38,947 nt of DNA from Acidimicrobiales bacterium (GTDB lineage: Bacteria; Actinomycetota; Acidimicrobiia; Acidimicrobiales; GCA-2861595): NCBI GenBank assembly GCA_035540975.1, contig DATLFN010000014.1, forward strand, positions 1 to 38,947. Reading direction: 5' to 3'. Of this stretch, positions 2,227-24,195 are shown in pieces. Both the position numbers and the translations under genes were made by a program. Under the pieces are notes generated by a model that made no database searches, had not been told where the DNA came from, and saw nothing but the letters and a program-made list of their open reading frames with translations. Each line of letters opens with the position of its first letter. Position 1 is the first letter of the stretch.

Positions 2227-2694
2227 CAGCTGGGCCAGCAGGCTCTCGACCACCGAGACCCGCCCGCCCGTGCGCTCCCAGTCGTCACCGATACGGCGGT
2301 GGTCGACCAGGCCCCACGCGTCGGGCCCGATGCCGAGGGAGCCGGTGGCGGCGGCCTGGAGGGGTGACGGCTCCGTCTCGTCGCCGTACGCCGGGTACGC
2401 CTCCAGCCCGTCCCACAGGGCCTCCGGCGGCGCCACGGGCGGCTCGCCCCGGGCCAGCGCCAGGGCGACGCCGGGGAGCAGGTCGTCGGTGCCGGCCCCC
2501 CCGGGCCGTCGGAAGCCCGCCACCGGGTGGAGGCGCCACTCGAGGGCGATGCCGCCCGGGCCGTCGTCGCGGATCCACACCTGGGAGCCGTTGACGTAGG
2601 CGTCCAGGGGCTCCCCGAACCTCTCGTCGAGCGCCACGACGAGCGCCGGCGAGATGCGCCACACGCACGTAGGGGTGAGCCGGACCGGCGCCAC
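2215..2694 (-). CDS. Hypothetical protein, 159 aa
   Basis: A minus-strand frame whose C-terminal ~155 residues read like a genuine soluble protein, with mixed composition and segments such as RISPALVVALDERFG, VNGSQVWIRDD and DAWGLVDHRRIGDDWERTG. Further upstream the same frame is low-complexity Ala/Pro/Arg that mirrors the opposite gene. I therefore place the start at the GTG at 2694; a later GTG in the CVWR segment is an alternative. I recognise no family, signal peptide or membrane segment. It is convergent with the Nudix gene (12-base overlap) and divergent from the metallopeptidase gene, leaving about 80 bases for both promoters. Confidence 0.6.
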   Translation of the reverse strand: MAPVRLTPTCVWRISPALVVALDERFGEPLDAYVNGSQVWIRDDGPGGIALEWRLHPVAGFRRPGGAGTDDLLPGVALALARGEPPVAPPEALWDGLEAYPAYGDETEPSPLQAAATGSLGIGPDAWGLVDHRRIGDDWERTGGRVSVVESLLAQLSAG

Positions 2695-2776
2695 GGGGCG
2701 ACACGCTACGGCGGCGGCGCGACCGTCCGGCGCCGCCGCGCCCGCTGGGCGCCGCCGCACCTGCCAGCATGGGCCC

Positions 2777-4297
2777 GTGCGCCGACTCGCCACCCTCCTC
2801 GCCGCCGCCGTCCTCGCCGGCGCCTGCGGCGGCGACGGGGACGACTCGGCGGGGCCGGCGCCGTCGGCCTCCGTCACCACGGCGACGGCGCCGGCGGAGG
2901 CGACGAGCACCACCGCCGCGGCTCCCGCCACCACGGCACCGTCCAGCGCGGCGACGTCCACGGCGGCGCCGGGGCCCGGCGGGACGGCGGCGGCCCCGAC
3001 GACGCGGGCGCCGGCCGCGGCCGGGCCCGGGCGGCCGGCGGCGTCGTGCCCGGCCATCCCGGCCCGGCCGGCGCCGCGGGAGGACCGCTCGCGCTACACC
3101 CTGCGCATCGACGTGAAGCCCGACCGGAACGTGGTGGAGGGCGACCTCACGGTGCGCTTCACGCCCGACCTGCCCACCGACCAGCTGGTGTTCCGCCTGT
3201 GGGCCAACTCCCCGCGCACGGCGGCGGCCGGCGCCCGCCTCGACGTCGCCGGCGTGTTCGTCGGCGGCCAGCGGGTGGACGCCGTGCAGCCCGACGCCAC
3301 CACGGTGGTGGCCCGTCCCGGGCCGCTGGCGCCGGGCCGGGCGATCGACGTGAACGTGCCCTGGAGGCTGACGCTGCCGGGCACGGTGTCGGACCGGATC
3401 TCGCGCACCGGCGACGCCATCCGCCTCGGCTCGTTCTTCCCGATCCTGGCCTGGGAGCCGGGAGTGGGCTGGGCCGTGCAGCCGGCTACCTCCGGCTTCG
3501 CCGAGGCGTCGATGACCCCGCAGGCCGACTTCGCCGCCACCGTGTCCGTGCCGCCCGGCTTCGACGTGCTGGCCACCGGGGTCAACGACGGGAGCGGCCG
3601 GTGGACGGCGACGGCGGTGAACGACTTCGCCATGTCGGTCGGGCACTTCTCGATGGCGTCGGCCACCGCCAATGCCCCCCAGCCCGTGCAGGTGACCGTA
3701 GGCGTCCACCAGGGGATCGCCGAGTCGCCCGCCGCCTACGCCTCGCGCATCGTGCGTGCCCTGGAGGACTTCGGGCGGCGTTTCGGTCCCTACCCGTGGC
3801 CGACCTACACGATGGCCGTCACGCCGCAGCTCGGCGGCGGCATCGAGTACCCGATGCACGTCCTCCAGGGCCCCGGCACGATGGGGCGCACCACGTCGCA
3901 CGAGGTGGCCCACATGTGGTTCTACGGACTCGTCGCCAACGACCAGGGGCGCGACCCGTGGATGGACGAGGGCCTCGCCACCTATGCCGAGGGGCGCTTC
4001 GAGGGCAGCCTCGAGACCATCAGGTCGACGCCGGTCCCGGCGGCCGGACGGGGCCGCGCCGGCGAGCCGATGAGGTACTGGGAGCCGCGGCAGTCCATCT
4101 ACTACCGAAGTGTCTACACCCAGGGAGCGCAGGCGGTCGCCGCCCTCGGTGATGCCGAGCTGGTCGACTGCGCGCTGCGCGTCTACGTCGCCCGCAAGGG
4201 CTACCGCGTGGCGCGGCCGGGCGACTTCATCGAGGCGGCGAAGGCGGTGTTCCCCGACGCGGCGGAGGTCCTCGGGCGCTACGGGATCCGCTCATAG
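2777..4297 (+). CDS. M1-family zinc metallopeptidase, predicted lipoprotein
   Basis: A 506-residue protein. The GTG at 2777 is chosen because it gives a clean lipoprotein signal (VRRLATLLAAAVLAGAC, lipid-anchored Cys17). A Thr/Ala/Pro-rich linker to about residue 95 would space the enzyme from the membrane. The catalytic part shows the M1 signatures: an exopeptidase-type motif GGGIEYP (cf. GAMEN), HEVAH (His375, Glu376, His379) and the third zinc ligand Glu398 in PWMDEG. The protein is shorter than pepN-type aminopeptidases (~850 aa) and lacks the long C-terminal helical domain. It should act outside the cell on peptides. It is the last gene before the lanthipeptide operon on the same strand, 277 bases upstream. 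M1-type proteases are, as I recall, reported to remove class III lanthipeptide leaders, so it is a candidate maturation protease. Its role here is inferred. Confidence 0.87.
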   Translation: MRRLATLLAAAVLAGACGGDGDDSAGPAPSASVTTATAPAEATSTTAAAPATTAPSSAATSTAAPGPGGTAAAPTTRAPAAAGPGRPAASCPAIPARPAPREDRSRYTLRIDVKPDRNVVEGDLTVRFTPDLPTDQLVFRLWANSPRTAAAGARLDVAGVFVGGQRVDAVQPDATTVVARPGPLAPGRAIDVNVPWRLTLPGTVSDRISRTGDAIRLGSFFPILAWEPGVGWAVQPATSGFAEASMTPQADFAATVSVPPGFDVLATGVNDGSGRWTATAVNDFAMSVGHFSMASATANAPQPVQVTVGVHQGIAESPAAYASRIVRALEDFGRRFGPYPWPTYTMAVTPQLGGGIEYPMHVLQGPGTMGRTTSHEVAHMWFYGLVANDQGRDPWMDEGLATYAEGRFEGSLETIRSTPVPAAGRGRAGEPMRYWEPRQSIYYRSVYTQGAQAVAALGDAELVDCALRVYVARKGYRVARPGDFIEAAKAVFPDAAEVLGRYGIRS

Positions 4298-4574
4298 CAC
4301 CAAATCCACGAAAACCGACATACCGGTATTTGACCTTCACACAAAGCGTCATTTCTGCAATTGCCGCGTTTCTCCGCTCGGGGTCGTGGGTACTGAGACG
4401 ACGACCGGCGGACGGTCCGAGCTGTTTACGTACAAGACAACGGCAGAGCTGGAGCCGACCTTCGAATCGGGGCTCGCCGCTCCTAGGCGGGCGAGGCTGA
4501 ACATGCATTCCTCGCCGGCGTGACACGGCTGGCGGCTTTGAATCGTCGCGTCCCTACGGCGAGGAGGGAGGTTC
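4298..4574 (+). promoter_or_regulatory. AT-richer upstream region of the lanthipeptide operon
   Basis: A 277-base gap with no credible gene. Bases 4300-4370 are clearly richer in A/T than the surroundings and contain the perfect palindrome ATACCGGTAT (4320-4329), then a TTGACC (-35-like) at about 4330. A well-spaced -10 was not found. Another AT-rich patch (TTTACGTACAAGAC) lies near 4425-4440. A Shine-Dalgarno GGAGGGAGG sits just before the GTG at 4575. This is the only place for the operon promoter, since the downstream gaps are short. Assignment as promoter is by position. Confidence 0.5.
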
Positions 4575-7193
4575 GTGGACCACGGCTACGACGAGTTCTG
4601 CCTGGCGGACCCGTACTTCTACGACGCCTGCACCGTCACCAGGGGCGACGACGTCGACTTCCCCGTCGCCGACCGGCCGGTGGCCCCGGGCTGGAAGCGG
4701 ACGCCGTCGGACGACTGGCTCGTCTACTGGCCGGAGGACGCGGACGTCCCGCCCCAGGGCTGGAAGGTGCACGTCTCGGCGTGCCTCGGCAACGCCGAGG
4801 ACGTCCTCGGCGTGGTGTTCGACTACTGCACGCAGCGGCGGGTCCCGTTCAAGTTCGTCCGCAGCCTTCAGTGCGTGCTGCTGCGCAACGTCAAGTACGC
4901 CGACCGCGGGGCGAGCGGCAAGTTCGTCACCATCTACCCGTCGGACGACACCCAGCTGGAGACGATCCTCACCGAGCTCGGGGCGGCCCTGGAGGGCCAG
5001 CCCGGCCCGTACATCCTGAGCGACCTCCGCTTCGGGAACGGCCCGCTCTACGTCCGCTACGGGGGCTTCGCCGAGCGGTGGTGCGTCGGGGCGAACGGCC
5101 TCCTGGAGCTGGGCGTCGCCGACCCCGAGGGCCGGCTGGTGCCCGATCATCGAGGCCCCACGTTCAGCCCGCCGCCGTGGGCCACGCTGCCGGCGTTCCT
5201 GGAGCCGCACCTGGCGGCTCGGGCCGACGCCACCGTCCAGGAGCTTCCCTACCGCATCGAGCGGGCCATCCACTTCTCCAACGGCGGCGGCCTCTACGTG
5301 GGCGTGGACGAGCGCGACGGGGACCAGGTCGTGCTCAAGGAGGCGAGGCCGCACGCCGGCCTCGACACGTCCGGGGCCGACGCCGTCGAGCGGCTGCTCC
5401 ACGAGCAGCGCATGCTCGAGCGGCTGGCCGGCCTCGACGTGGTGCCGGCCGTGCGCGACTCCTTCACGATCGCCGACCACCGGTTCCTGGTCCTCGACCA
5501 CGTCGACGGCGTCTCGCTCAACTCGACGGTGGTCGACCGGTACCCGCTGCTCACCGACCGGGTCGACACCGACGAGGTGGCCGCGTACACCCGCTGGGCC
5601 CTCGACGTGGTGGCCGCCCTGGAGGGGGCGGTGGCGGCCCTCCACCGCCGCGGGGTCGTGTTCGGCGACCTCCACCCGGGCAACGTGCTGGTCCGCCCCG
5701 ACGGGCGCGTCGTGCTCGTCGACTTCGAGATGGCGAGCGATGTGGCGGACCACCGCCGGCCCACCCTCGCCGAGCCCGGCTTCGCGCCGCCGGCGGGCTG
5801 CGTCGGGCGCGACGTCGACCTCCACTCCCTGGCCGTGATGCGGGTGTTCCTGTTCCTCCCGCTCACCAACCTGTTCGCCCTCGACCGGGCCAAGGTGCGG
5901 CAGTTCGCGGTGGAGATCCCGCGGCTGTTCCCGGTCCCGGCCGACTACGTCGCCTCGGTGGTGCCCACGATCGCGCCCCCCGCGTTCTTCCCGGCGACCG
6001 AGGCCCCTCCGGCCGTCGAGCCCACGGCCGCGGGTTGGCGGGCGGCACGCGAGTCGATAACCGCGGCGATCCTGGCCAGCGCCACACCCGGGCGCGACGA
6101 CCGCCTGTTCCCGGGTGACGTCAAGCAGTTCCAGACGGGCGGGCTGAACCTCGCCCATGGTGCCGCCGGCGTCCTGTACGCCCTGGCGGAGACGGGGGCG
6201 GGCCGGTTCCCCGACCACGAGCAGTGGCTGCTCGACCGGGCCGTCCACCCCGCACCGGGCGCCCGCCTCGGCCTCTACGACGGCCTCCACGGCGTGGCCT
6301 TCGTGCTGGACCGGCTGGGCCATCGCGCCGAGGCGCAGAAGGTCCTCGACATCTGCACGGACGAGCTCACCGGCCGCGAGGACCGGCTCGGGCTGGACCT
6401 GTTCGGCGGGCTGGCCGGGATAGGCCTGAACCTCGCCCACTTCGCCGCCGCCCACGGGGACCCGGCCCTCGCCGAGGCGGCCCGGGCGGTGGCCGGGGTG
6501 GTGGCCGACCGACTGGGCGACGAGGACGACGTCGCGCCGGTCAGCGGCGGGGCCAACCCCTACGCCGGGCTGGTACGCGGCTCGTCGGGCCCGGCCCTGT
6601 TCTTCCTGCGCCTCTACGAGCAGTCGGGCGACGCCGCCCTTCTCGACCTGGCCGCCGCCGCCCTCCGCCAGGACCTGCGGCGCTGCGTCACCCGCGACGA
6701 CGGCGCCCTCGAGGTCGACGAGGGATGGCGCACCATGCCGTACATCGCCGACGGGAGCGCCGGGATCGGCATGGTCCTGGAGGAGTACCTGCGCCACCGG
6801 CCCGACCAGCGGTTCGAGCAGGCGGCGGCCGGCGCCCGGCGCACGGCGGCCACCGGCTTCTTCATCGAGCCGGGCCTGTTCTACGGCCGCGCCGGCATGA
6901 TCCTCTCCCTGTCACGCACGGCCGGTCGCGGCGACGGCGCCGTCGACGCCGCGGTGGCGGAGCACGTCCGCCGGCTGTCGTGGCACGCCATGGGCTACCA
7001 GGGGCATCTCGCCTTCCCGGGCGAGCAGCTCATGCGCCTCTCGATGGACCTGGCGACGGGAACGGCCGGCGTGCTGCTGGCCCTCGGCGCCGCCCTTCAC
7101 GATTCCCCCGTCCACCTCCCCTTCCTCGGCCTCGGCGGCCGGGTGGAGCCGGAGGTGGCGGCCACGGTGTCTACCAATCAGGGAAGGAGGTGA
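4575..7193 (+). CDS. Class III lanthipeptide synthetase LanKC (RamC/AmfT-like)
   Basis: An 872-residue trifunctional enzyme that dehydrates Ser/Thr of the precursor and forms (methyl)lanthionine or labionin rings. Order: N-terminal lyase domain (~1-200); Ser/Thr-kinase-like domain (~225-500) with Lys255 in VVLKEA, catalytic loop GDLHPGN (Asp365, Asn370) and DFE (Asp383) in place of DFG; C-terminal LanC-like cyclase (~515-870). The cyclase lacks the Zn ligands: where Zn-type LanC has WCxG the sequence is LFYGRAG (residues 768-774), and no CHG motif is present. This makes it class III rather than class IV. GTG start with a strong GGAGG 8-12 bases upstream. It is the first gene of the operon, and its stop lies inside the ribosome-binding site of the precursor gene. 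The length is typical for RamC/AmfT proteins. Confidence 0.95.
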   Translation: MDHGYDEFCLADPYFYDACTVTRGDDVDFPVADRPVAPGWKRTPSDDWLVYWPEDADVPPQGWKVHVSACLGNAEDVLGVVFDYCTQRRVPFKFVRSLQCVLLRNVKYADRGASGKFVTIYPSDDTQLETILTELGAALEGQPGPYILSDLRFGNGPLYVRYGGFAERWCVGANGLLELGVADPEGRLVPDHRGPTFSPPPWATLPAFLEPHLAARADATVQELPYRIERAIHFSNGGGLYVGVDERDGDQVVLKEARPHAGLDTSGADAVERLLHEQRMLERLAGLDVVPAVRDSFTIADHRFLVLDHVDGVSLNSTVVDRYPLLTDRVDTDEVAAYTRWALDVVAALEGAVAALHRRGVVFGDLHPGNVLVRPDGRVVLVDFEMASDVADHRRPTLAEPGFAPPAGCVGRDVDLHSLAVMRVFLFLPLTNLFALDRAKVRQFAVEIPRLFPVPADYVASVVPTIAPPAFFPATEAPPAVEPTAAGWRAARESITAAILASATPGRDDRLFPGDVKQFQTGGLNLAHGAAGVLYALAETGAGRFPDHEQWLLDRAVHPAPGARLGLYDGLHGVAFVLDRLGHRAEAQKVLDICTDELTGREDRLGLDLFGGLAGIGLNLAHFAAAHGDPALAEAARAVAGVVADRLGDEDDVAPVSGGANPYAGLVRGSSGPALFFLRLYEQSGDAALLDLAAAALRQDLRRCVTRDDGALEVDEGWRTMPYIADGSAGIGMVLEEYLRHRPDQRFEQAAAGARRTAATGFFIEPGLFYGRAGMILSLSRTAGRGDGAVDAAVAEHVRRLSWHAMGYQGHLAFPGEQLMRLSMDLATGTAGVLLALGAALHDSPVHLPFLGLGGRVEPEVAATVSTNQGRR
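7182..7193 (+). promoter_or_regulatory. Exceptionally strong Shine-Dalgarno for the precursor gene
   Basis: GGAAGGAGGTGATTGC just before the ATG at 7200 contains AAGGAGGTGAT, an almost full-length complement of the 3' end of 16S rRNA. Its TGA is also the stop codon of lanKC (7191-7193). Ribosomes ending lanKC therefore terminate on the precursor's ribosome-binding site, which favours coupled, high-level translation of the peptide substrate. Confidence 0.85.
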
Positions 7194-7199
7194 TTGCAC

Positions 7200-7340
7200 A
7201 TGGCGATCCTTGACCTGCAGGGTATGGAGCAGAAGCCGTCCGCTGGCGCCATCAAGGGCAAGAGCGGGGCGAGCAAGGGCTGCACGATCGGCGGTGGTGG
7301 TGGTGGCGGCGGCAGCCGTCTGAGCCTTCTCCTCTGCTAG
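7200..7340 (+). CDS. Class III lanthipeptide precursor (SapB/AmfS-like), two ring motifs
   Basis: A 46-residue peptide, too short for usual gene calling. The leader carries ILDLQGMEQ (residues 3-11), matching the (I/L)xDLQ recognition helix of RamS/AmfS-type leaders that binds LanKC. The core region has S22-G-A-S25-K-G-C28 and S39-R-L-S42-L-L-L-C46. Both fit the Ser-x2-Ser-x(2-5)-Cys pattern from which LanKC enzymes make labionin or lanthionine. The second closely resembles the SRASLLLC of SapB. Eight successive Gly residues (31-38) separate the two, and the peptide ends on the ring cysteine. It lies between lanKC and two ABC exporters, exactly as ramS does. The stop is doubled (TAG TAG). By analogy the product would be an amphiphilic, surfactant-like or morphogenetic peptide; that role is inferred. 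Confidence 0.93.
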   Translation: MAILDLQGMEQKPSAGAIKGKSGASKGCTIGGGGGGGGSRLSLLLC

Positions 7341-7358
7341 TAGCAGCACTGAGCGCCG

Positions 7359-7396
7359 CGGGGCAGCCGCCCGGCACGGTTCGGGCGGCCGCCCCG
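7359..7396 (+). terminator. Strong hairpin after the precursor gene (attenuator or mRNA stabiliser)
   Basis: CGGGGCAGCCGCCCG (7359-7373) pairs with CGGGCGGCCGCCCCG (7382-7396): 15 positions with a single A-C mismatch around an 8-base loop. No T-tract follows, and the exporter genes continue in the same direction. It is therefore more likely a partial terminator or a 3'-end stabiliser that raises precursor mRNA relative to the exporter genes. Confidence 0.7.
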
Positions 7397-7458
7397 AGGT
7401 GCAGACGACCGACGTTGTTCTGCGGGCGCCGCCCGCCGGGACGAGCAGGACGGAAAAC

Positions 7459-9276
7459 GTGAGCGACGAGCACAGCGACGACGCGGCGCGCGCGGACCAC
7501 CGCGCCGCCGACCGGCTGCTCGTGCGCGCCTCACGCCGCGGGGGGATGGCGCTGGGCGCGCTGGCGCTCACGTCCTTGGGGATGGCCGCCGCCGAGACGG
7601 CGCTGCCCGCCGTGCTCGCCCGGGCGGTGGACACCATCGTGGCCGGCGACGGGGGCTCGGGGGCCTGGGTGCTGTGGGGCGGCGTCCTCGTCGCAGCGCT
7701 GGTGGCGTTCGACCTCGTCGACGACCTGGCGGCGGGCGCCACCACGGCGCGCTCGACGGCGTGGCTGCGCCACTCGCTCCTGCGCCACGTGCTCGACCTC
7801 GGACCGAGGGCGGCGCGGCTGGCGCCGGGCGACGTCGCCAGCCGGATGGTCGCCAACACGGCGGCGGCCGGGAAGGCGGCCCCCGACGTGGTGCGGGCGG
7901 TGGCCAACCTGGTGCCGTCGGTGGGCGGCATCGTGGCGTTGGCGCTGATCGACCCGTGGTTGTGCGTCACCTTCCTCGCCGGCCTTCCCCTGCTCGTGGT
8001 CCTCCTGCGGGCGTTCGTGCGTGACGCCTCGTCGATGGCCAGCGGGTACCTGGAGACGCAGGCCGGGATCGCCGGCCGACTGGTGGGCGCCCTCTCCGGC
8101 ATCCGCACCATCGCCGCCGCCGGTGCCGTCGAGCGGGAGGTGCGCCGAGTCCTCCGCCCGCTGCCCGAGCTGCGCCGCTACGGGATGGGCATGTGGAGGG
8201 CCCAGCTGCGGCTGTCGACGCAGGACGCGCTGCTGCTCCCGCTGCTCGAGGTGCTGGTTCTCGCCGTCGCCGGGTTCCGCCTGGCCGGCGGCCACCTCAG
8301 CCCCGGCGAGCTGCTCGCCGCCGGCCAGTACGTCCAGTTGGCGTCCAACATCGGCGCAGCCGGTGCGACCGCCGACCGCCTGGCGCGGGCCCGGGCGGGG
8401 GCCGCCCGGGTCGCCGACGTGCTCGACCGGGAGCCGGTCGCCTACGGCGACGGCGCGCTCGCCGACGGAGACGGCTCGCTGGAGATGCGGGACGTCACCG
8501 TGCGGGCCGGCGGCCGGGTCGTGCTCGACGGGCTGACCCTGACCGTCCCCGGCGGCGCGCTGGCCGCCGTCGTCGGCACCTCGGGCTCGGGCAAGTCGCT
8601 GCTGGCCGCCCTCGCCGGCCGCCTGGCCGACCCCGACGAGGGCAGCGTCCTGCTCGACGGCGTCGACCTGCGCTCGCTGACCCGACACGAGCTGCGCCGG
8701 GCCGTCTCCTACGGCTTCGCCCGGCCGGCGCTCCTGGGCGAGACGGTGGGCGAGGCCATCGCCTTCGGCCATCACGAGCCGTCGGTGGAGGAGGTGGTCG
8801 CCGCCGCGTGCGGCGCCCAGGCCGACCCGTTCATCCGCCACCTGCCCCAGGGGTACGCCACCCCGGTCGCCGAGGCGCCGATGTCGGGCGGCGAGGCCCA
8901 GCGGGTGGGGCTGGCCCGGACGTTCGCCCACGCCGGCCGCCTCGTGGTCCTCGACGACGTGGCCGCCAGCCTCGACACGGTCACCGAGCACCAGATCGCC
9001 CGCGTGCTCACCGGGCGGTTGGCTGGGCGGACGCGCCTCGTCGTCGCCCACCGCGCCTCCACGGCGGCCCGAGCCGACGTCGTCGTGTGGCTCGAGGGCG
9101 GGAGGGTGAGGGCGGTGCGGCCGCACCAGGTGCTCTGGGACGATCCCGCCTACCGGGCCGTGTTCGGCGCCGAGCAACCGGGTGGGGCGCCCGACGAGCC
9201 GTTCGCCGCCGGTGCGGCGGGAGACGGCCGTTCCGCCGCTCCCGAGCCCGTCGAGGCCGCCCGGGGGGCGGCATGA
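7459..9276 (+). CDS. ABC exporter subunit 1 (RamA/AmfB-like), permease-ATPase half transporter with degenerate site
   Basis: A 605-residue half transporter if the GTG at 7459 (after GGACGG) is the start; an in-frame GTG at 7399 would add 20 residues. An N-terminal membrane domain (~30-330) is followed by an ATPase domain: Walker A GTSGSGKS, signature MSGGE (475-479), Walker B VVLDD (Asp499-Asp500) and H-loop VVAHR. The catalytic Glu after Walker B is Asp, as in the degenerate half of heterodimeric ABC exporters. It should pair with the product of the next gene and export the modified lanthipeptide. It has no peptidase (C39) domain, so leader removal must be done by another protein. Its stop overlaps the next start (ATGA). 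Confidence 0.9.
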   Translation: MSDEHSDDAARADHRAADRLLVRASRRGGMALGALALTSLGMAAAETALPAVLARAVDTIVAGDGGSGAWVLWGGVLVAALVAFDLVDDLAAGATTARSTAWLRHSLLRHVLDLGPRAARLAPGDVASRMVANTAAAGKAAPDVVRAVANLVPSVGGIVALALIDPWLCVTFLAGLPLLVVLLRAFVRDASSMASGYLETQAGIAGRLVGALSGIRTIAAAGAVEREVRRVLRPLPELRRYGMGMWRAQLRLSTQDALLLPLLEVLVLAVAGFRLAGGHLSPGELLAAGQYVQLASNIGAAGATADRLARARAGAARVADVLDREPVAYGDGALADGDGSLEMRDVTVRAGGRVVLDGLTLTVPGGALAAVVGTSGSGKSLLAALAGRLADPDEGSVLLDGVDLRSLTRHELRRAVSYGFARPALLGETVGEAIAFGHHEPSVEEVVAAACGAQADPFIRHLPQGYATPVAEAPMSGGEAQRVGLARTFAHAGRLVVLDDVAASLDTVTEHQIARVLTGRLAGRTRLVVAHRASTAARADVVVWLEGGRVRAVRPHQVLWDDPAYRAVFGAEQPGGAPDEPFAAGAAGDGRSAAPEPVEAARGAA

Positions 9277-11009
9277 CGGCGCCCGCCGTGGCTCGCCGCC
9301 ACGAGGGCCGGCGCCTCCTGGCCCGATCGCTGTCGGGCCGCCGCCGGGTGGTGGCGGCACTGCTCGCCTGGTCGACCGTCCAGGCCCTTCCCGCCTTCCT
9401 CAGCGGGCGGCTCCTGGCGCAGGCGGTGGACGACGGGTTCCTCGCCGGGCGCGCCGGGACGGGGTTCGCCTGGCTGGGAGCGCTCGGCGTGGCCGTCGTT
9501 GTCGGCGCCTGGGGCACCCGGGAGACCTACCTCCGCCTGGCGTCGCTGGTGGAGCCGTTCCGCGACGAGCTGGTGGAGGTCGTGGTGACGGGCGCTCTGC
9601 GCCGGGCGGCGGTGTCGGGGCGGCCGGCGGACAGCGGTGGCGTGGCCCGTCTCACCCAGCACGTGGAGATCCTGCGCGAGGCCTACGCCGGCGTCCTCAT
9701 GACGGTGCAGGGGTTCGCCATCACGGCGGGAGGCGCCGTCCTCGGCCTCTTCGGCCTCCTGCCCGCCGCCCTCGTCCTCGTCCTGCCGCCGCTCGTCGCC
9801 GGCCTCGCCGTCTTCGCTGCTGCGCTGCGCCCGATGGCCGCCCGCCAGCGAGCGTCCATCCTGGCCGACGAGGCCATCTCGGAGTCGGCGTCGGCCGTGG
9901 CCGACGGGCTGCGCGACGTCGTCGCCTGTGGCGGCGAGGGCGCCGTCGAATCCACCGTCGGCCGTCACGTCGACGCCCAGGCGGGGGCGACGGTGGCCCT
10001 CGCCCGGACGACGGCCGTGGGTACGGGGGCGGTGGCCGTCGGCGGGTGGCTGCCCGTCATCCTGCTGCTGGCCGCCGGCCCGTCGCTGGTGCGGGACGGT
10101 GCCACGACGGGCGAGCTGATCGGCGCGCTGACCTACGTGCTGTACGGCATCCACCCCGCGCTCCAGACCCTCGTGCGCCAGCTGGGCGGCGCCGGCCTGT
10201 GGCTGTTCGTGACGCTCGACCGGGTGGTCGAGGCGACGGCCGGCGACCCGCCCGGCCCGGCGCCGTCCGACGCGCCCGGTGGGCGGGCGCCGGGCCCCGG
10301 GTCGGCGGACCTCCTCCTGGACGACGTGACGTTCCGCTACGGCGCGTCCCCCGACCCGGTGATCCGCCACCTCGACCTCGAGGTCCAGGAGGGGGAGCAC
10401 CTGGCCATCGTGGGGCCGAGCGGCGTGGGCAAGTCCACGCTCGCCGGGCTCATGGCCGGCCTGCTCGTCCCCCAGTCCGGAGAGGTGCTGCTCGGCGGGG
10501 TGAAGGCGGCCGACGTCGTCCCCGGGGAGCTGGCCCGGTGGCGGGCGCTCATCCCCCAGGAGGCCTACGTCTTCCCGGGGACGGTCCGGGAGAACGTGAC
10601 CTACCTGCGGGGCGGCGCGGGCGACGGCGAGATCGACGCCGTGGTGGACCTCCTCGGCGCCCGCCCGCTGGTCGACCGCCTGGGCGGGCTCGACGGCGGC
10701 GTCGACGGCGGCGCCCTCTCGGCCGGTGAGCGCCAGCTCCTCACCCTCGTGCGGGCCTACCTCTCGCCCGCCCCGGTGGTGGTGCTGGACGAGGCGACGT
10801 GCCACCTCGACCCGGCCGCCGAGGCCCGGGTGGAGCTGGCGTTCGCCCGCCGTCCCGGCACGCTGATCGTGATCGCCCACCGCATCAGCTCGGCGCTGCG
10901 GGCCCGGCGGGTGCTGGTCCTCGACGGCGCCGGCACGGCGGCGGGCACCCACGACGAGCTCCTCGACGGCTCCGTGCTCTACCGGGACCTCGTCGGCCAC
11001 TGGGGCTGA
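9273..11009 (+). CDS. ABC exporter subunit 2 (RamB/AmfA-like), catalytically canonical half
   Basis: A 578-residue permease-ATPase half transporter. Its ATG overlaps the stop of subunit 1 by four bases. Membrane segments occupy ~25-300 and the ATPase domain ~340-575: Walker A GPSGVGKST, signature LSAGE (482-486), Walker B VVLDEAT (Asp506, Glu507) and H-loop IVIAHR. The catalytic Glu is present here but the signature has Ala for Gly. Together with the Asp in subunit 1, one composite ATP site is normal and the other degenerate, which is typical of an obligate heterodimer. It is the last gene of the lanthipeptide operon, followed by a convergent gene. No regulator or protease gene follows, unlike ramR in Streptomyces. 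Confidence 0.9.
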   Translation: MTAPAVARRHEGRRLLARSLSGRRRVVAALLAWSTVQALPAFLSGRLLAQAVDDGFLAGRAGTGFAWLGALGVAVVVGAWGTRETYLRLASLVEPFRDELVEVVVTGALRRAAVSGRPADSGGVARLTQHVEILREAYAGVLMTVQGFAITAGGAVLGLFGLLPAALVLVLPPLVAGLAVFAAALRPMAARQRASILADEAISESASAVADGLRDVVACGGEGAVESTVGRHVDAQAGATVALARTTAVGTGAVAVGGWLPVILLLAAGPSLVRDGATTGELIGALTYVLYGIHPALQTLVRQLGGAGLWLFVTLDRVVEATAGDPPGPAPSDAPGGRAPGPGSADLLLDDVTFRYGASPDPVIRHLDLEVQEGEHLAIVGPSGVGKSTLAGLMAGLLVPQSGEVLLGGVKAADVVPGELARWRALIPQEAYVFPGTVRENVTYLRGGAGDGEIDAVVDLLGARPLVDRLGGLDGGVDGGALSAGERQLLTLVRAYLSPAPVVVLDEATCHLDPAAEARVELAFARRPGTLIVIAHRISSALRARRVLVLDGAGTAAGTHDELLDGSVLYRDLVGHWG

Positions 11010-11037
11010 GCGCCGCCCGGGCCCGGCGACTGCGGCA

Positions 11038-11913
11038 CTACTCGGGCGACTGGTCCCGCAGGAAGCGCTCGACCTCGCCGGCCAGGTCGGGGGGTGGGGG
11101 CCACGGCAGCTCGTCGGGCTCCTCGTCGTCGCCGCCGTCGCCGTCGCCCAGCTCCTCGAGGCGGGCGACGTAGCCGGCCACGTCGTCGTCCTCCGACACC
11201 ACCTCGCTCACCTGGCGCTCGTAGGCGGCGGCCGCCACCTCGAGGTCGAGCGTCTCGATCCTCGCCCCCAGCAGGGACGCCGTGCGCTCGACCAGGGCGA
11301 GGGCGGCCTTGGGCGACGGCGTGCCGGACACGTAGTGGGGGACGCCCGCCCACAGCGACGCCGAGGGGATCTCGGCCCCGGCCAGGGCGTCGTGGAGGAC
11401 CCCGACGATGCCCGTCGGCCCCTGGTAGCGGGACCGCTCCAGGCCGAGCCGGCGCTCCAGCTCGGGGTCGGCGGCCGTGCCCGTGACGCGCACGGGCATG
11501 GTGTGCGCCACCTCGGCTCCCAGCCCGCCCAGGGTGATGGCGATCTCGACGCCCAGCGACCGGGCCACCTCCACCAGCGCGCCCGTGTACGTCCGCCACC
11601 GCAGCTGCGGCTCGGCGGCGTGGAGGAACACGACGTCGTGGGCGGTGCCGACAGGCGAGGCGGCGCTCAGCTCGCCGTCCGGCCAGCTGACCTCGCGCCG
11701 CGTCCCGTCGCGAAGGGCGACCCGCGGCCGGGTGACCGTGAAGTCGTAGAACTCCTCGGGGTCGATGGTGGCGAACTGGCGGGCGGCCCACTGGGCGGCG
11801 AGGTAGCGGGCGGCCAGCGAGGCGCACTCGCCGGCGTCGTTCCAGCCCTCGAACGCCGCCACCAGCACGGGCCGGCGCAGGCGCGGGCGGTCGTCCCAGC
11901 GCACGGGGTCCAC
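11038..11913 (-). CDS. PAC2-family protein
   Basis: A 291-residue protein with the PAC2 family pattern: AFEGWNDAGE near the N-terminus, a central LGGLGAEVAHTMPV segment and PSASLWAGVPHYV followed by SPKAALALVER. PAC2 proteins are ATP-grasp-unrelated relatives of proteasome assembly chaperones and are common in actinobacteria, where the true role is not established. The last ~45 residues are acidic and proline-rich (DGDGGDDEEPDELPWPPPP), then a short helix. GTG start at 11913. It is convergent with the exporter gene and divergent from the helicase, whose start is 64 bases away, so the two may share a promoter region. Confidence 0.85.
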   Translation of the reverse strand: MDPVRWDDRPRLRRPVLVAAFEGWNDAGECASLAARYLAAQWAARQFATIDPEEFYDFTVTRPRVALRDGTRREVSWPDGELSAASPVGTAHDVVFLHAAEPQLRWRTYTGALVEVARSLGVEIAITLGGLGAEVAHTMPVRVTGTAADPELERRLGLERSRYQGPTGIVGVLHDALAGAEIPSASLWAGVPHYVSGTPSPKAALALVERTASLLGARIETLDLEVAAAAYERQVSEVVSEDDDVAGYVARLEELGDGDGGDDEEPDELPWPPPPDLAGEVERFLRDQSPE

Positions 11914-11977
11914 GGGCGAACGCTAACCCGGGGCGACCGGGAAGCCGTACTCACGGCGCGGTCCTACGCTTGGCGGC

Positions 11978-14900
11978 GTGCCGTCGCTGGACCGGTTCTC
12001 GCCGATCACGCGGGCCTGGTTCACGGCCACCTTCGAGGCGCCGACGCCGGCCCAGGAACGGGGATGGGACGCGGTCAGCCGGGGCGAGTCCGCCCTGGTC
12101 CTGGCGCCCACCGGGTCGGGCAAGACGCTTGCCGCCTTCCTGTGGACGCTCGACCGCCTGCTCACCACGCCGCCGCCGGAGGACGCCGGGAAGCGCTGCC
12201 GGGTGCTGTACGTGTCGCCCCTCAAGGCCCTGACGTACGACGTCGAGCGCAACCTGCGCGCCCCCCTCGCCGGCATCGCCCTGGAGGCGCAGCGGGCCGG
12301 CCTCGACCCGCCGTCGGTGACGGTCGCCACCCGCACCGGCGACACCCCCGCCCGCGAACGCCGCGACATCGCCCGCCACCCGCCCGACATCCTCATCACC
12401 ACGCCGGAGTCCCTGTACCTGGTCCTCACCTCGGCGGCGTCGGGGATCCTCGGCTCGGTCGAGCACGTGATCGTCGACGAGATCCACGCCGTCGCCGCCA
12501 CCAAGCGGGGGACCCACCTGGCGCTCTCCCTGGAACGGCTGGAGCGGCTGGTGGCCCGGGCCGGCGGCGCGCCGCCGCAACGCATCGGCCTGTCCGCCAC
12601 CCAGCGCCCCCTGGAGGAGCTGGCCCGCTTCCTGGGCGGCCGGGCGCCCGACGGCACCGCCCGGCCCGTCACCATCGTGGACGCCGGGAGCCGCAAGGCG
12701 CTCGACCTCGAGGTCGTCGTGCCCGTCGAGGACATGGGCGAGCTCGGCAAGCCGCTCCGACCGGGCGGCCCGGACGACCTGGTGATGAGCGGGCCGGCGG
12801 CGGGCGACCCGGAGGTGCGGTCGTCGATCTGGCCCGCCATCCATCCGGTGCTGCTGGACCTCGTGCGCCGCCACGTCTCGACGCTCGTGTTCGTGAACTC
12901 CCGGCGGCTGGCCGAGCGCCTGGCCGGGCGGCTCAACGAGCTGGCCGGCGAGGAGCTGGTGCGGGCCCACCACGGCTCGGTGGCACGCGAGCAGCGGCTG
13001 GAGGTGGAGGACGCACTCAAGGCGGGCAGGCTGCCGGCCCTGGTCGCCACCTCGTCGCTCGAGCTCGGGATCGACATGGGGGCGATCGACCTCGTGGTCC
13101 AGGTGGAGGCGCCGCCGTCGGTCGCCGCCGGCATGCAGCGGATCGGCCGGGCCGGCCACCGGGTGGGGGAGCCGTCCAAGGGGCGCATCTTCCCGAAGTT
13201 CCGCGGTGACCTCCTGGTGGCCGCCGTCGTCGCCCGGCGCATGACCGAGGGGCTCATCGAGGAGACGGCCATCCCCCGCAACCCGCTGGACGTCCTCTCG
13301 CAGCAGATCGTGGCCATGGTGGCGGTCGAGGACCTGAGCGTCGACGAGGTCTCCCGGGTCGTGCGGGGCGCCTACCCCTTCGCCGACCTGACCGGCGAGG
13401 CGCTGGAGGGCGTGCTCGACATGCTGGCCGGGCGCTACCCGTCCACCGAGTTCGCCGAGCTGCGTCCCCGCCTGGTGTGGGACCGGGCGGCGGGGATGCT
13501 GCGGGCCCGGCCCGGTGCCCGCATGCTGGCCGTCACCAGCGGCGGGACGATCCCCGACCGCGGGCTGTTCGGCGTCTACACGCCCGAGGGCTCGCGGGTG
13601 GGCGAGCTGGACGAGGAGATGGTCTACGAGAGCCGGGTGGGCGAGACGTTCGTCCTGGGTGCCACCACCTGGCGCATCGAGGAGATCACCCGCGACCGGG
13701 TGGTGGTCACGCCCGCCCCCGGTGTGCCGGGCAAGATGCCCTTCTGGCACGGCGACCAGGTCGGCCGCCCCTACGAGCTCGGTCGGGCCGTCGGGGCGTT
13801 CCTGCGCCAGGTCGGCGACCTGCCCGACGAGCGCCTGGCCGAGGACCACCGGCTCGACCCGCTCGCCCTCCGCAACCTCCGCGCCTACCTGGACGAGGAG
13901 CGGGAGGCGACGGGCGGCGTGCTGCCCACCGACCGCCAGGTGGTGGTCGAGCGCTTCCGGGACGAGCTGGGCGACTGGCGCATCTGCGTGCTCTCCCCGT
14001 TCGGCGCCCGGGTCCACGCGCCGTGGGCCCTCGCCATCGAGGCGGGGATCCGGCGCCGCCTGGACGTCGAGGTGCACGCCATCTGGTCCGACGACGGCAT
14101 CGTCGTGCGCCTGCCCGAGGCCGACGACGCCCCGCCCGCCGATGCCGTCGTCCTCGACCCCGAGGAGGTCGAGGAGCTGGTTGTCGGCGAGCTGGGATCG
14201 GCCGGGCTGTTCGCCTCCCGGTTCCGGGAGAACGCCGCCCGCGCCCTCCTGCTGCCCCGGCGCCGGCCGGGGTCGCGCACGCCGCTGTGGCAGCAGCGCC
14301 AGCGGGCCGCCGACCTGTTGTCGGTGGCGTCCAACTACGGCTCGTTCCCGATCCTGCTGGAGACCTACCGGGAGTGCCTGCGGGACGTGTTCGACCTGCC
14401 CGCCCTGGTCTCGCTGATGACCGACGTGCGGGCCCGCAAGGTGCGCGTCACGTCGGTGGACACGCCGTCGCCCTCGCCCTTCGCCTCGTCCCTCGCCTTC
14501 TCCTACGTGGCCTCGTTCATGTACGAGGGCGACGCCCCCCTGGCCGAGCGGCGGGCCCAGGCCCTCACGCTGGACCGGCGCATGCTGGCCGAGCTGGTGG
14601 GGTCCGACGAGCTGCGGGAGCTGATCGACCCGGCCGCCCTGGCCCAGCTGGAGGCCGAGCTCCAGGCCCTGGACGAGCGCCGGTGGGCGGCCACCGCCGA
14701 CGCCGCCTCCGACCTGCTGCGCCGGCTGGGCGACCTGTCGGCCGCCGAGCTGGACGCCCGCTGCCGCCGCCCCTTCGCCGCCGAGCTCCTCCGGGACCGG
14801 CGGGCGGTGGAGGTGCGGGTGGCCGGTGAGCGCCGGCTCATCGCCGCCGAGGACGCCGGCCGCTACCGCGACGCCCTCGGGGTGTCGCCTCCCGCCGGCG

Positions 14901-16366
14901 TGCCCGAGGCGTTCCTGGAGCCGGTGCAGGACGCCCTGGCCCAGCTGGTGCGGCGCTGGGCCCGCACCCACGGGCCGTTCCGCACGGCCGAGCCGGCGCT
15001 CCGCTTCGGGCTCCCCACCGAGGCCGTGCGGGCCGAGCTGGCCGCCCTGGCCCGCGCCGGCGCCGTCCTGCGGGGCGAGTTCCGTCCCGACGGCACCGAG
15101 CGGGAGTGGTGCGACGCCGAGGTGCTGCGGGTGCTGCGCCAGCGCTCGCTGGCCGCCCTGCGCCGGGAGGTGGAGCCGACGCCGCCCGACGCACTGGCCC
15201 GCTTCCTCCCGGCGTGGCAGGGGATCGGCGCCGACGCCGGTGGTCCGGATCGCACCTTCGAGGTCGTCGCCCAGCTCCAGGGCGTGGCCGTGCCGGTCAG
15301 CGTGCTCGAGCGCGACGTCCTGCCGGCGCGCGTGCGCGGCTACTCCCCCCGGCTCCTGGACGAGCTGCTCGCCGCCGGCGACGTGATGTGGGTGGGCGCC
15401 GGCTCCCTCGGGAGGGACGACGGCAAGGTGGTGCTCCTGCTGCGGGGCACGCCGCTGGCGCGCACGGCACCGCTCGGTGACCGGCCCGAGGGGCCCGAGC
15501 ACGGTCGCATCCGCGAGGTGCTGGCGTCACGGGGTGCGTGCTTCTTCCGGGAGCTGGGCGGCGCCGACGACGGCGCCACCCTCGACGCCCTGTGGGACCT
15601 GGTGTGGGCGGGCGAGGTCACCAACGACTCCTTCGCCGCCGTGCGTGCGCTGCGCAGCGGGAGGCGCTCGGGCTCGCGCACCACGAGGTCGGGCCGGCCG
15701 CGCGTCGGCAGCCTCAGCGCGCTCGGGCCCCCGCGGGGCCAGGGCCGGTGGTCGCTGGTCGAGCGGGGCGGCGTGAACGCGACCGAGGCGGCCGCCGCCC
15801 GGGCGGCCGCCCTGCTGGAGCGCCACGGCGTGCTCACGAGGGAGGCGGCCCGGGGCGAGGGCGTACCCGGCGGGTTCGCCGGCGTGTACCCCGTGCTGCG
15901 CGCCATGGAGGAGTCGGGGCGGGTGCGGCGGGGCTACTTCGTCACCGGGCTGGGCGGCGCCCAGTTCGCGCTCCCGGGAGCGGTCGACCGCCTGCGCTCG
16001 GTGCGCGACGCCGGCGGCTCCGGCCGCGCACCCGCCGCCGCCGTGCTGGCCGCCACGGACCCGGCCAACGCCTACGGCGTGGCGCTGCCGTGGCCCGTCC
16101 CCGGTCCCCGGCGGGTGGCGGGGGCGTACGTCGTGCTGCTGGACGGGCTGGCGTCGCTCTACGTGGAGAAGGGAGGCCGGGCCCTCGTCGCCCTGCGCCC
16201 CTACGACGGCGAGTGGGAGTCCTTCGCCGTCGCCGCGCTCACCACCCTCCTGGCCGACGGCCGGCTGGCCCGCCTCGGCGTCGAGCGCTACGACGCCGAG
16301 CTGGCACCCGCCCTCGCCGCCGCCGGCTTCGTCCCCACGCCCAAGGGGCTGGTGCGCTACGCCTGA
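11978..16366 (+). CDS. lhr: Lhr-family large ATP-dependent helicase
   Basis: A 1462-residue superfamily 2 helicase, close to full Lhr length (~1500). Motifs in order: Q-like segment FEAPTPAQERGWDAV, Walker A APTGSGKT (~residue 43), DEIH box (~167), SAT motif (SATQRP), the RecA2 segment SSLELGIDMG and motif VI QRIGRAGHR. Then comes the long winged-helix and Lhr-specific C-terminal region (DEAD_assoc-type), through GLVRYA. Lhr translocates on single-stranded DNA and unwinds RNA:DNA hybrids in repair. The GTG at 11978 has little Shine-Dalgarno, but the protein begins directly with the helicase fold. It is followed, after a palindrome, by a base-excision glycosylase. The two are commonly adjacent in actinobacteria, suggesting a repair pair. 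Confidence 0.93.
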   Translation: MPSLDRFSPITRAWFTATFEAPTPAQERGWDAVSRGESALVLAPTGSGKTLAAFLWTLDRLLTTPPPEDAGKRCRVLYVSPLKALTYDVERNLRAPLAGIALEAQRAGLDPPSVTVATRTGDTPARERRDIARHPPDILITTPESLYLVLTSAASGILGSVEHVIVDEIHAVAATKRGTHLALSLERLERLVARAGGAPPQRIGLSATQRPLEELARFLGGRAPDGTARPVTIVDAGSRKALDLEVVVPVEDMGELGKPLRPGGPDDLVMSGPAAGDPEVRSSIWPAIHPVLLDLVRRHVSTLVFVNSRRLAERLAGRLNELAGEELVRAHHGSVAREQRLEVEDALKAGRLPALVATSSLELGIDMGAIDLVVQVEAPPSVAAGMQRIGRAGHRVGEPSKGRIFPKFRGDLLVAAVVARRMTEGLIEETAIPRNPLDVLSQQIVAMVAVEDLSVDEVSRVVRGAYPFADLTGEALEGVLDMLAGRYPSTEFAELRPRLVWDRAAGMLRARPGARMLAVTSGGTIPDRGLFGVYTPEGSRVGELDEEMVYESRVGETFVLGATTWRIEEITRDRVVVTPAPGVPGKMPFWHGDQVGRPYELGRAVGAFLRQVGDLPDERLAEDHRLDPLALRNLRAYLDEEREATGGVLPTDRQVVVERFRDELGDWRICVLSPFGARVHAPWALAIEAGIRRRLDVEVHAIWSDDGIVVRLPEADDAPPADAVVLDPEEVEELVVGELGSAGLFASRFRENAARALLLPRRRPGSRTPLWQQRQRAADLLSVASNYGSFPILLETYRECLRDVFDLPALVSLMTDVRARKVRVTSVDTPSPSPFASSLAFSYVASFMYEGDAPLAERRAQALTLDRRMLAELVGSDELRELIDPAALAQLEAELQALDERRWAATADAASDLLRRLGDLSAAELDARCRRPFAAELLRDRRAVEVRVAGERRLIAAEDAGRYRDALGVSPPAGVPEAFLEPVQDALAQLVRRWARTHGPFRTAEPALRFGLPTEAVRAELAALARAGAVLRGEFRPDGTEREWCDAEVLRVLRQRSLAALRREVEPTPPDALARFLPAWQGIGADAGGPDRTFEVVAQLQGVAVPVSVLERDVLPARVRGYSPRLLDELLAAGDVMWVGAGSLGRDDGKVVLLLRGTPLARTAPLGDRPEGPEHGRIREVLASRGACFFRELGGADDGATLDALWDLVWAGEVTNDSFAAVRALRSGRRSGSRTTRSGRPRVGSLSALGPPRGQGRWSLVERGGVNATEAAAARAAALLERHGVLTREAARGEGVPGGFAGVYPVLRAMEESGRVRRGYFVTGLGGAQFALPGAVDRLRSVRDAGGSGRAPAAAVLAATDPANAYGVALPWPVPGPRRVAGAYVVLLDGLASLYVEKGGRALVALRPYDGEWESFAVAALTTLLADGRLARLGVERYDAELAPALAAAGFVPTPKGLVRYA

Positions 16367-16388
16367 CACCGCCGCCACCACGGCTCCG

Positions 16389-16438
16389 GTTCTCGCACCA
16401 GGAATCGACCGCCTGCGGTCGATTCCTGGTGCAGGAAC
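16389..16438. repeat. Long perfect palindrome between lhr and nei
   Basis: GCACCAGGAATCGACCGC (16395-16412) and GCGGTCGATTCCTGGTGC (16415-16432) are perfect inverted repeats of 18 bases with a 2-base centre (CT). After one mismatch the pairing extends another five positions on each side (with one G-T pair), for a 50-base element. It ends 32 bases before the nei ATG. It could be a bidirectional terminator, but the near-zero loop and high symmetry also fit a dispersed palindromic (REP-like) element. No second copy was found in this window. Confidence 0.85.
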
Positions 16439-16470
16439 GGTCGGGGGCGGTGCCAGACGGGCCGGGGACG

Positions 16471-17274
16471 ATGCCTGAGGGCGACACCATCCTCCGGGCC
16501 GCCCGGTCGCTCGGGCGCTGGCTGGAGGGGCGGGAGATCACGGCGGCGCGCTCGCAGCGCCTCAAGGTGCCGGCCGACCGGCTGGTCGGCCACACCGTCG
16601 AGTCGGTGGAGGCGCGGGCCAAGCACCTGCTGATCCGGCTGTCGTCGGGCGACGTGCTGCACACCCACATGCGCATGACCGGGTCGTGGCACGTGTACCG
16701 GGCAGGGGAGCGGTGGCGCAAGCCGGGGTGGCAGGCCCGGGTGGTGCTGGAGGCGGGCGACCGGGTGGCCGTGTGCTTCGACGCCCCGGTGGTCGAGCTG
16801 CTGTCGCCGGGCGAGGTGGAGCGCCACCCGTCCATCGCCCGCCTGGGGCCCGACGTGCTGGTCGACCCGTTGGACACCCACGAGGTGGCCCGGCGGGCGG
16901 CGGCCCGCCCGGCGGACGTCCCGATCGGCGACGTCCTGCTCGACCAGCGGGTGGTGTCCGGCATCGGCAACATCTACCGCTGCGAGTCGCTGTTCCTCGC
17001 CGGTCTGCACCCGGCGACGCCCCGGTCGGCGGTGGAGGGCCGGACGCTGGCCGACCTGGTCCGCACCGCCTCGGACCTCATGCGGGCCAACCTCGAGCCC
17101 GGCGCCGGGTTCGACCGCCGCTTCGCCCCGCTCGGCGGCCCCCGCGGCGCCTGGGTGTACGGGCGGGGCGGCCGGCCGTGCTACCGGTGCCGCACGCCCG
17201 TCGCCACCGCCGTCCTCGGCGACCCGCCCAGGGACGTGTGGTGGTGCCCGTCGTGCCAGCCGGCACCCGCCTGA
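16471..17274 (+). CDS. nei: Fpg/Nei-family DNA glycosylase/AP lyase
   Basis: A 267-residue protein. The ATG at 16471 is fixed by the N-terminal MPEGDT: after Met removal, Pro2 is the Schiff-base nucleophile and Glu3 the proton shuttle. Lys51 (ARAKHLLI) matches the conserved beta-hairpin Lys, and HTHMRMTGSWHVY is the typical central strand. The helix-two-turn-helix region contains VVSGIGNIYRCE. A C-terminal zinc finger has Cys237, Cys240, Cys259 and Cys262. The enzyme excises oxidised pyrimidines or purines and cleaves the abasic site; Nei (endonuclease VIII) type is favoured by MPEGDT rather than MPELPE. It lies on the same strand as lhr, separated by the palindrome. Confidence 0.93.
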   Translation: MPEGDTILRAARSLGRWLEGREITAARSQRLKVPADRLVGHTVESVEARAKHLLIRLSSGDVLHTHMRMTGSWHVYRAGERWRKPGWQARVVLEAGDRVAVCFDAPVVELLSPGEVERHPSIARLGPDVLVDPLDTHEVARRAAARPADVPIGDVLLDQRVVSGIGNIYRCESLFLAGLHPATPRSAVEGRTLADLVRTASDLMRANLEPGAGFDRRFAPLGGPRGAWVYGRGGRPCYRCRTPVATAVLGDPPRDVWWCPSCQPAPA

Positions 17275-22193: not shown

Positions 22194-22375
22194 CCCTGTG
22201 GCGTCGTGGGAGGCGACGTGGGAGTGGGAGTGGACGGTGAGTCGAGTCCCTGGCGAGGCGCACCCCGGCCACCGATGCATCCCGGTCTTGCCCAACCGCT
22301 GACGCTGGGCGCCTCAGTGTGAGGACGCTTGCTACCCCGCCGGTCGGCTGAATGGGCTGGGGTGGGCCCGTTCCC

Positions 22376-24055: not shown

Positions 24056-24133
24056 GAGACCGTCCCCTCGCTCGGATCCGGATCCAGGAGCCGTCGCCGG
24101 CCCGTCGGGGCGGACAGTACCGGTTCGCCACCT

Positions 24134-24175
24134 TTACGGCAATGGCCGCTTCGGTACCTTACGGCGCCCTACGGC
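24134..24175 (-). repeat. Three GCCGTA-type direct repeats upstream of paralogue A
   Basis: On the minus strand GCCGTAG (24175-24169), GCCGTAA (24165-24159) and GCCGTAA (24140-24134) recur with 10- and 25-base steps, ~80-120 bases before the start of the beta-helix gene at 24055. Direct heptamers one helical turn apart look like an operator; the function is inferred only from this spacing. Confidence 0.5.
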
Positions 24176-24195
24176 AAGCGTGACCAGGCGGCCGC

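What the first reader, a model, noticed from the sequence alone, without database searches (positions are those of the whole stretch)
4575..11009. Complete class III (SapB/AmfS-type) lanthipeptide cluster outside the usual Streptomyces setting
The order lanKC, precursor, ABC 1, ABC 2 equals that of ram/amf, yet the flanking housekeeping genes and gene order do not look like Streptomyces. A ramR-like regulator is missing next to the cluster. This would extend the SapB-type surfactant or morphogen family to another actinobacterial lineage.
Basis: partly seen in the sequence, partly recalled or inferred. Interest (0 to 1): 0.75.

Follow-up and report, generated by a model that had tools for sequence, protein, structure and literature searches.

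The report
Class III lanthipeptide cluster in Acidimicrobiia
An uncultured actinobacterium far from Streptomyces carries a complete, probably old set of four genes for making and exporting a small ring-closed peptide related to the Streptomyces aerial-growth peptide SapB, but the peptide itself has a different ring layout and nothing shows that it does SapB's job.

Summary
Window 4575-11009 holds lanKC, a precursor (7200-7340, MAILDLQGMEQKPSAGAIKGKSGASKGCTIGGGGGGGGSRLSLLLC) and two ABC half-exporters, in ram/amf order. The host is a MAG of class Acidimicrobiia, not Streptomyces. LanKC is 67, 63 and 59% identical to three other Acidimicrobiia and at most about 58% identical to any Streptomyces sequence found. 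It falls in a supported clade (97/98) separate from the Streptomyces SapB/AmfS clade: four Acidimicrobiia and four rare Streptomyces, one on a linear plasmid. Both exporters show the same grouping. The clade has its own core peptide: S-x-A-S-K-x-C, a variable, often Gly-rich spacer, then S-x-x-S-L-L-L-C at the C-terminus; SapB's second ring is absent. A RamR-like regulator is missing next to the cluster here and in G002 and G320, but present in the Streptomyces and Micromonosporaceae relatives checked. The cluster interrupts a conserved M1-PAC2-Lhr locus that is intact in cluster-free relatives; in a second genus it sits one gene over. No chaplins were found in the host genome, so a SapB-like surfactant role is unproven. 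Verdict: a real, ordinary class III cluster in an under-sampled lineage, with a modestly distinct precursor type.

The parts
4298..4574 (+). intergenic region upstream of lanKC (61% GC against 71-77% for the cluster); probable promoter region, no regulator gene
   Evidence: sequence and GC; no sigma-70-type consensus found
4575..7193 (+). lanKC: class III lanthionine synthetase (RamC_N lyase - kinase - LanC-like), 872 aa
   Evidence: NF038151 1089.6 bits, PF25816, PF00069, PF05147; K255, D365 and D383 kinase residues invariant in 14 aligned LanKCs
7200..7340 (+). lanA: precursor MAILDLQGMEQKPSAGAIKGKSGASKGCTIGGGGGGGGSRLSLLLC; leader with LDLQ, core motifs SGASKGC and SRLSLLLC
7459..9276 (+). 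lanT1: ABC half-exporter (membrane domain + ATPase; no C39 peptidase; Walker B 'LVVLDD', Glu replaced by Asp)
   Evidence: the G002 match begins at the residue-1 position of this start
9273..11009 (+). lanT2: ABC half-exporter (Walker B 'VVVLDE')
2654..4297 (+). flanking M1-type metallopeptidase gene (HEVAHMW...E); part of the conserved locus, not of the cluster
11038..11913 (-). flanking PAC2-family gene; part of the conserved locus
11978..16366 (+). flanking Lhr-type helicase gene; part of the conserved locus

Best explanation
A functional class III lanthipeptide cluster in an Acidimicrobiia bacterium. LanKC would bind the LDLQ leader of the 46-aa precursor, phosphorylate and eliminate Ser residues, and close Lan or labionin rings at S22-G-A-S25-K-G-C28 and S39-R-L-S42-L-L-L-C46, joined by a flexible oligo-Gly hinge. 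The two half-exporters would form one heterodimeric exporter. The leader would be trimmed by a chromosomal AplP-like M1 protease encoded outside the cluster. The product is most likely a secreted, membrane- or surface-active peptide. Shown by sequence: the genes, their families, order, phylogeny and the precursor motifs. Inferred: ring chemistry, export, leader removal and activity. The cluster has been in this bacterial family long enough to match its base composition, and it did not come recently from a Streptomyces SapB cluster.
For: Family assignments are far above the curated cut-offs for LanKC and above them for the precursor. The same four-gene cassette with the same precursor type occurs in two other Acidimicrobiia, G002 and G320, and in S. 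violens and S. sp. KN37; the S. sp. Ru73 contig ends within the first exporter, and S. ficellus keeps lanKC and the precursor but no exporters nearby. In the seven precursors of this type, LDLQ, S-[GR]-A-S-K-x-C and S-x-[LY]-S-L-L-L-C are conserved while the spacer varies from a few residues to about ten, which is what selection on two rings and a hinge predicts. LanKC, ABC1 and ABC2 trees agree on the grouping of Acidimicrobiia with the rare Streptomyces. The genome has two full-length M1 peptidases elsewhere, 200 and 259 bits; M1 proteases of the AplP type remove class III leaders and are often unclustered (PMC10885120). Cluster GC3 of about 0.96 equals that of its neighbours.
Against: No expression, mass or activity data exist. 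The genome is a MAG. Ring topology (Lan or labionin) cannot be read from sequence. No adjacent regulator or dedicated protease was found. Whether the M1 proteins are functional AplP equivalents was not tested.
Confidence: 0.85

Rival explanations
1. It is a true SapB/AmfS morphogen cluster: the peptide is a biosurfactant that helps filaments leave the aqueous phase, as in Streptomyces.
For: Same gene order, same leader motif and same S-x-x-S-L-L-L-C ring as the first ring of SapB; passes the SapB_AmfS model NF033212. One Acidimicrobiia genome with a more SapB-like two-ring precursor, G473, also has chaplin-like proteins.
Against: The second SapB ring is missing and another ring sits upstream. 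LanKC and exporters lie outside the Streptomyces SapB/AmfS clade. No chaplins in G000, G002, G320 or G334. No adjacent ramR.
Confidence: 0.15
2. The cluster was acquired recently from Streptomyces.
For: Four Streptomyces carry the same precursor type, one on a linear plasmid.
Against: 58% identity at best to Streptomyces against 67% to a sister genus; composition matches the host; the Streptomyces members form one tight subclade on a long stem while the Acidimicrobiia members are deeply divergent.
Confidence: 0.04
3. The flanking M1 peptidase (2654-4297) belongs to the cluster as its dedicated leader protease.
For: It lies directly upstream in the same orientation; AplP-type M1 proteases process class III leaders (PMC10885120); it is also next to the locus in G002.
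Against: It is conserved at 58-75% identity next to NUDIX and PAC2 in three relatives that lack the cluster, G001, G003 and G004, and PAC2 separates it from the cluster in G002. Only a short part fits the M1 model, whereas full M1 enzymes exist elsewhere in the genome.
Confidence: 0.08
4. The cluster was inserted twice, independently, into neighbouring gaps of the M1-PAC2-Lhr locus in two genera, rather than inserted once with later movement of PAC2.
For: Window: M1-[cluster]-PAC2-Lhr. G002: M1-PAC2-[cluster]-Lhr. G004, of the same genus as G002, has the empty site.
Against: Two hits within about 1 kb by chance are unlikely; the two clusters are sisters in all three gene trees and diverge about as much as M1 and PAC2 do (67-71% against 73-76%).
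Confidence: 0.4

Closest known systems
SapB (ramCSABR, S. coelicolor) and AmfS (S. griseus) clusters
   Same: Gene order lanKC - precursor - ABC - ABC; LDLQ leader; S-x-x-S-L-L-L-C ring; same NCBIfam precursor family
   Different: No adjacent ramR; no second C-terminal ring (GDSSLSxTTCN); extra upstream S-x-A-S-K-x-C; oligo-Gly hinge; enzymes in a separate clade; host class Acidimicrobiia; no chaplins found
Unnamed SapB/AmfS-family cluster of Streptomyces sp. KN37 (plasmid NZ_CP139046, WP_320592329 and WP_223772607), S. violens, S. sp. Ru73, S. ficellus
   Same: Same precursor type, LanKC clade and (KN37, S. violens) exporter clade; about 58% LanKC identity
   Different: A RamR-like response regulator is present downstream in KN37, S. 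violens and S. ficellus; short spacer between the rings; S. ficellus lacks the exporters at the locus
Class III lanthipeptides with labionin (labyrinthopeptin, durhapeptin, rochsin A)
   Same: S-x2-S-x(2-5)-C motifs that can give labionin
   Different: Ring chemistry of the present peptide unknown; different core sequences

Membership tests
Class III lanthipeptide synthetase (LanKC) | Lyase - kinase - LanC-like three-domain enzyme above the curated NF038151 cut-off and preferred over class IV | tested here: met
   1089.6 bits against cut-off 575; LanL 422.5 against cut-off 650; RamC_N, Pkinase and LANC_like
Class III lanthipeptide synthetase (LanKC) | No LanC zinc ligands (Cys-Cys-His) in the cyclase domain | tested here: met
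   No Cys and no Cys-His pair in the motif-bearing stretch (FYGRAGM ... DLATGTAG) of the window protein, and no conserved ones in the 13 aligned LanKCs. Motif assignment to LanC from established knowledge.
Class III lanthipeptide precursor | LxLQ leader and S-x2-S-x(2-5)-C core motifs | tested here: met
   LDLQ at positions 4-7; SGASKGC and SRLSLLLC; motif definitions in PMC7268733 and PMC8960859
SapB/AmfS family lanthipeptide (NF033212, PF19402) | Precursor above the curated cut-off of the family model | tested here: met
   36.5 bits against 25; RamS 38.4 against 24.3 (run on a copy one Gly short)
SapB morphogen proper | Two tandem C-terminal S-x2-S-x3-C rings, the second as in SSLSxTTC | tested here: not met
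   Core ends at the Cys of the first SapB-like ring; the other ring lies upstream with x2 spacing
SapB morphogen proper | LanKC, RamA and RamB cluster with the Streptomyces ram/amf proteins | tested here: not met
   Separate clades for LanKC (97/98 and 100/100) and for both exporters
SapB morphogen proper | Adjacent ramR regulator | tested here: not met
   None next to the window, G002 or G320 clusters; best genome-wide match only 35% identical, among many generic response regulators
SapB morphogen proper | Surfactant activity or induction of aerial hyphae | not testable with these tools
   Needs the purified peptide

The most novel reading that the evidence does not exclude
The clade is a separate lineage of class III lanthipeptides, with two dissimilar rings joined by a variable hinge. 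It would have arisen or diversified in Acidimicrobiia without aerial mycelium, would serve a non-morphogen role (for example antagonism or surface adhesion), and would later have been passed to a few Streptomyces, at least two of which also keep a separate AmfS-type cluster.
Probability: 0.25. Interest if true: 0.5.

Novelty: new member of a known kind. Interest (0 to 1): 0.32.

Why it matters
It documents class III lanthipeptide clusters in Acidimicrobiia: five genomes were found here in two overlapping samples of about 400 genomes each, and the literature searches combining Acidimicrobiia with lanthipeptides returned no report of one. It gives a natural test of whether SapB-like peptides predate or are independent of aerial growth. 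The shared precursor type in a few Streptomyces, two of which also carry an AmfT-type cluster, shows how such cassettes move, and offers a simple two-ring core for testing how LanKC reads spacing between rings.

Tried and rejected
M1 peptidase as a cluster gene: rejected, because it is conserved in cluster-free relatives. Recent transfer from Streptomyces: rejected on identity, trees and composition. Class IV (LanL) assignment: rejected. Viral or prophage origin: the scan of viral contigs with LanKC found nothing. 16S placement: no SSU gene was found in the MAG, so taxonomy rests on the genome tool's kinship codes plus an exact contig match to a named Acidimicrobiia MAG. Chaplin search with built-in controls only was uninformative, so it was repeated with two genomes of the phylum that ring strongly. 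Monophyly of all five Acidimicrobiia LanKCs is neither shown nor rejected (AU p 0.095); G473 tends to group elsewhere. Promoter and terminator scans gave nothing.

Full report
Observation. The window holds a complete class III lanthipeptide cluster at 4575-11009. LanKC (4575-7193, 872 aa) scores 1089.6 bits against the LanKC equivalog model, nearly twice the cut-off, and stays below the class IV cut-off; its RamC_N, kinase and LanC-like domains are all recognised. The precursor lies at 7200-7340: MAILDLQGMEQKPSAGAIKGKSGASKGCTIGGGGGGGGSRLSLLLC. It passes Pfam RamS and NCBIfam SapB/AmfS (one search used a copy one Gly short). The exporters are 7459-9276 and 9273-11009, overlapping by four bases. 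No peptidase domain was recognised in either. In the sequence, the first has Asp (VVLDD) and the second Glu (VVLDE) after Walker B, as is common in heterodimeric exporters with one degenerate site (inference from established knowledge).

Host. The contig is C14 of a 3.45 Mb MAG, 96.9% complete. G334 is given as being of the same class. Its LanKC contig is the exact reverse complement of JACDBE010000045.1, titled 'Acidimicrobiia bacterium isolate MGR_bin274'. The class is therefore Acidimicrobiia, and the refuting condition 'contig belongs to Streptomyces' fails. A full-length LanKC was found in 4 of 395 genomes sampled from the class and 4 of 397 sampled from the order, five different genomes in all: G000, G002, G320, G334 and G473. 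It is rare and scattered.

Phylogeny. The window LanKC is 67% identical to G002, 63% to G334 and 59% to G320. The best Streptomyces sequences are about 58% (S. ficellus, S. violens, S. sp. Ru73, plasmid of S. sp. KN37). In a tree of 42 LanKCs these eight form one clade (97/98), apart from the Streptomyces SapB/AmfS clade (100/100) and from a Micromonosporaceae/Glycomyces clade (98/99). S. violens and S. sp. Ru73 carry both this type and an AmfT-clade LanKC (L024 with L044, L025 with L089). The four Streptomyces members are close to each other on a long stem, while the Acidimicrobiia members are deeply divergent. That favours Acidimicrobiia, or an unsampled relative, as the older holder, but the root is not resolved. 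G473 is less like the window (57%) and tends to group elsewhere; monophyly of the five Acidimicrobiia is undecided (AU p 0.095). Trees of both exporters repeat the grouping: window with G002 and G320, then S. violens and KN37, apart from the SapB exporters. The cassette has travelled as a unit.

Precursor type. The seven precursors of the clade share LDLQ, then S-[GR]-A-S-K-x-C, a spacer of a few to about ten residues (eight consecutive Gly in the window), then S-x-[LY]-S-L-L-L-C at the very end. SapB-type precursors instead have S-x-x-S-L-L-L-C followed by GDSSLSxTTCN and no upstream ring. Upstream S-x-x-S-x-x-C motifs also occur in Actinoplanes and Glycomyces precursors, there with further rings downstream, so this is a variant within a known kind. 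G334's precursor is beyond its contig end. G473's precursor is of the SapB two-ring kind: MTLLDLQGMDTTGGHGGGGGGGKDHSGLSLLICGGSDSSLSIVIC.

Locus. HD/ACT, NUDIX, M1 peptidase, PAC2 (reverse strand) and Lhr helicase form a conserved locus in this bacterial family. G004 has NUDIX-M1-PAC2-Lhr, G001 has HD/ACT-NUDIX-M1-PAC2-Lhr, and G003 has HD/ACT-NUDIX-M1-PAC2, all without the cluster. In the window the cluster lies between M1 and PAC2; in G002 it lies between PAC2 and Lhr; G004, from the same genus as G002, has the empty site. Cluster genes of window and G002 differ about as much as M1 and PAC2 do (67-71% against 73-76% identity), and cluster GC3 matches its neighbours. An old acquisition in the family followed by losses and a local rearrangement is slightly favoured over two insertions. 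The M1 gene belongs to the locus, not to the cluster.

Regulator. The S. violens, S. ficellus, KN37, Actinoplanes and Amorphoplanes relatives all carry a RamR-like response regulator downstream. The window and G002 do not, and the genes downstream of the G320 exporters are lipid and glycan genes. Elsewhere in the genome there are only generic response regulators, the best 35% identical to the S. violens one. A 2013 review found ramR only in streptomycetes (PMC4255298), which the Actinoplanes and Amorphoplanes cases may qualify (orthology to ramR itself was not tested).

Mechanism. Inferred: LanKC binds the LDLQ helix, phosphorylates Ser at S22/S25 and S39/S42, eliminates phosphate and adds C28 and C46 to give Lan or labionin; which of the two cannot be told from sequence. 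The ABC pair exports the peptide. Leader removal most likely relies on an AplP-like M1 protease outside the cluster. The genome has two full M1 proteins, AplP-type enzymes are often unclustered, and one of their reported cut sites, S-A-(S/T), resembles PSAG and PSAS in the window and G002 leaders (PMC10885120).

Function. The S-L-L-L-C ring suggests an amphipathic, surface-active product. The SapB morphogen reading is weakened by the missing second ring, the separate clade, the absence of an adjacent ramR and the absence of chaplins in G000, G002, G320 and G334, against 11 matches in each of two control genomes. G473, with a SapB-like precursor and chaplin-like proteins, is a better candidate for a morphogen system in Acidimicrobiia, but those proteins lie on contigs of about 2 kb and may be contamination.

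Known or new. Class III clusters are widespread in Actinobacteria and SapB is the commonest precursor family (PMC7268733); diverse clusters in Acidimicrobiia have been reported in general (PMC8692599). Full-text searches for class III lanthipeptide or lanthipeptide together with Acidimicrobiia gave no report of such a cluster in this class. KN37's precursor is already annotated as SapB/AmfS family. This is a new member of a known kind.

Noticed in passing
L141 (G473:C91:4001-24000) 10050-16626; L144 and L147: A 6.4 Mb genome of the same order has a class III cluster with a SapB-like two-ring precursor and, on contigs of about 2 kb, chaplin-like proteins with repeats (five Pfam ChpA-C matches). 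Possible SapB plus chaplin pairing outside the classical actinomycetes; contamination not excluded.
   Followed up: partly
window 35680-37053: One ORF holds two NarL-type response regulators in tandem: the full-length regulator query matches twice, and Pfam finds two LuxR-type helix-turn-helix domains with a strong receiver domain only in the second half. An unusual fused double regulator next to polysaccharide genes.
   Followed up: no
window 19097-38947: Long surface-polysaccharide region: DegT aminotransferase, glycosyltransferase, polysaccharide synthesis proteins, formyltransferase, methyltransferase, and Malectin plus beta-helix proteins. Glycan genes also lie near the KN37 and G320 lanthipeptide clusters.
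   Followed up: no
L026 8001-11426: S. ficellus keeps lanKC, the precursor and the RamR-like gene but has no exporter genes at the locus, unlike its relatives.
   Followed up: no
window 7290-7313: The Gly hinge of the precursor is coded by a run of GGN codons (eight Gly), a likely site of length variation between strains.
   Followed up: partly
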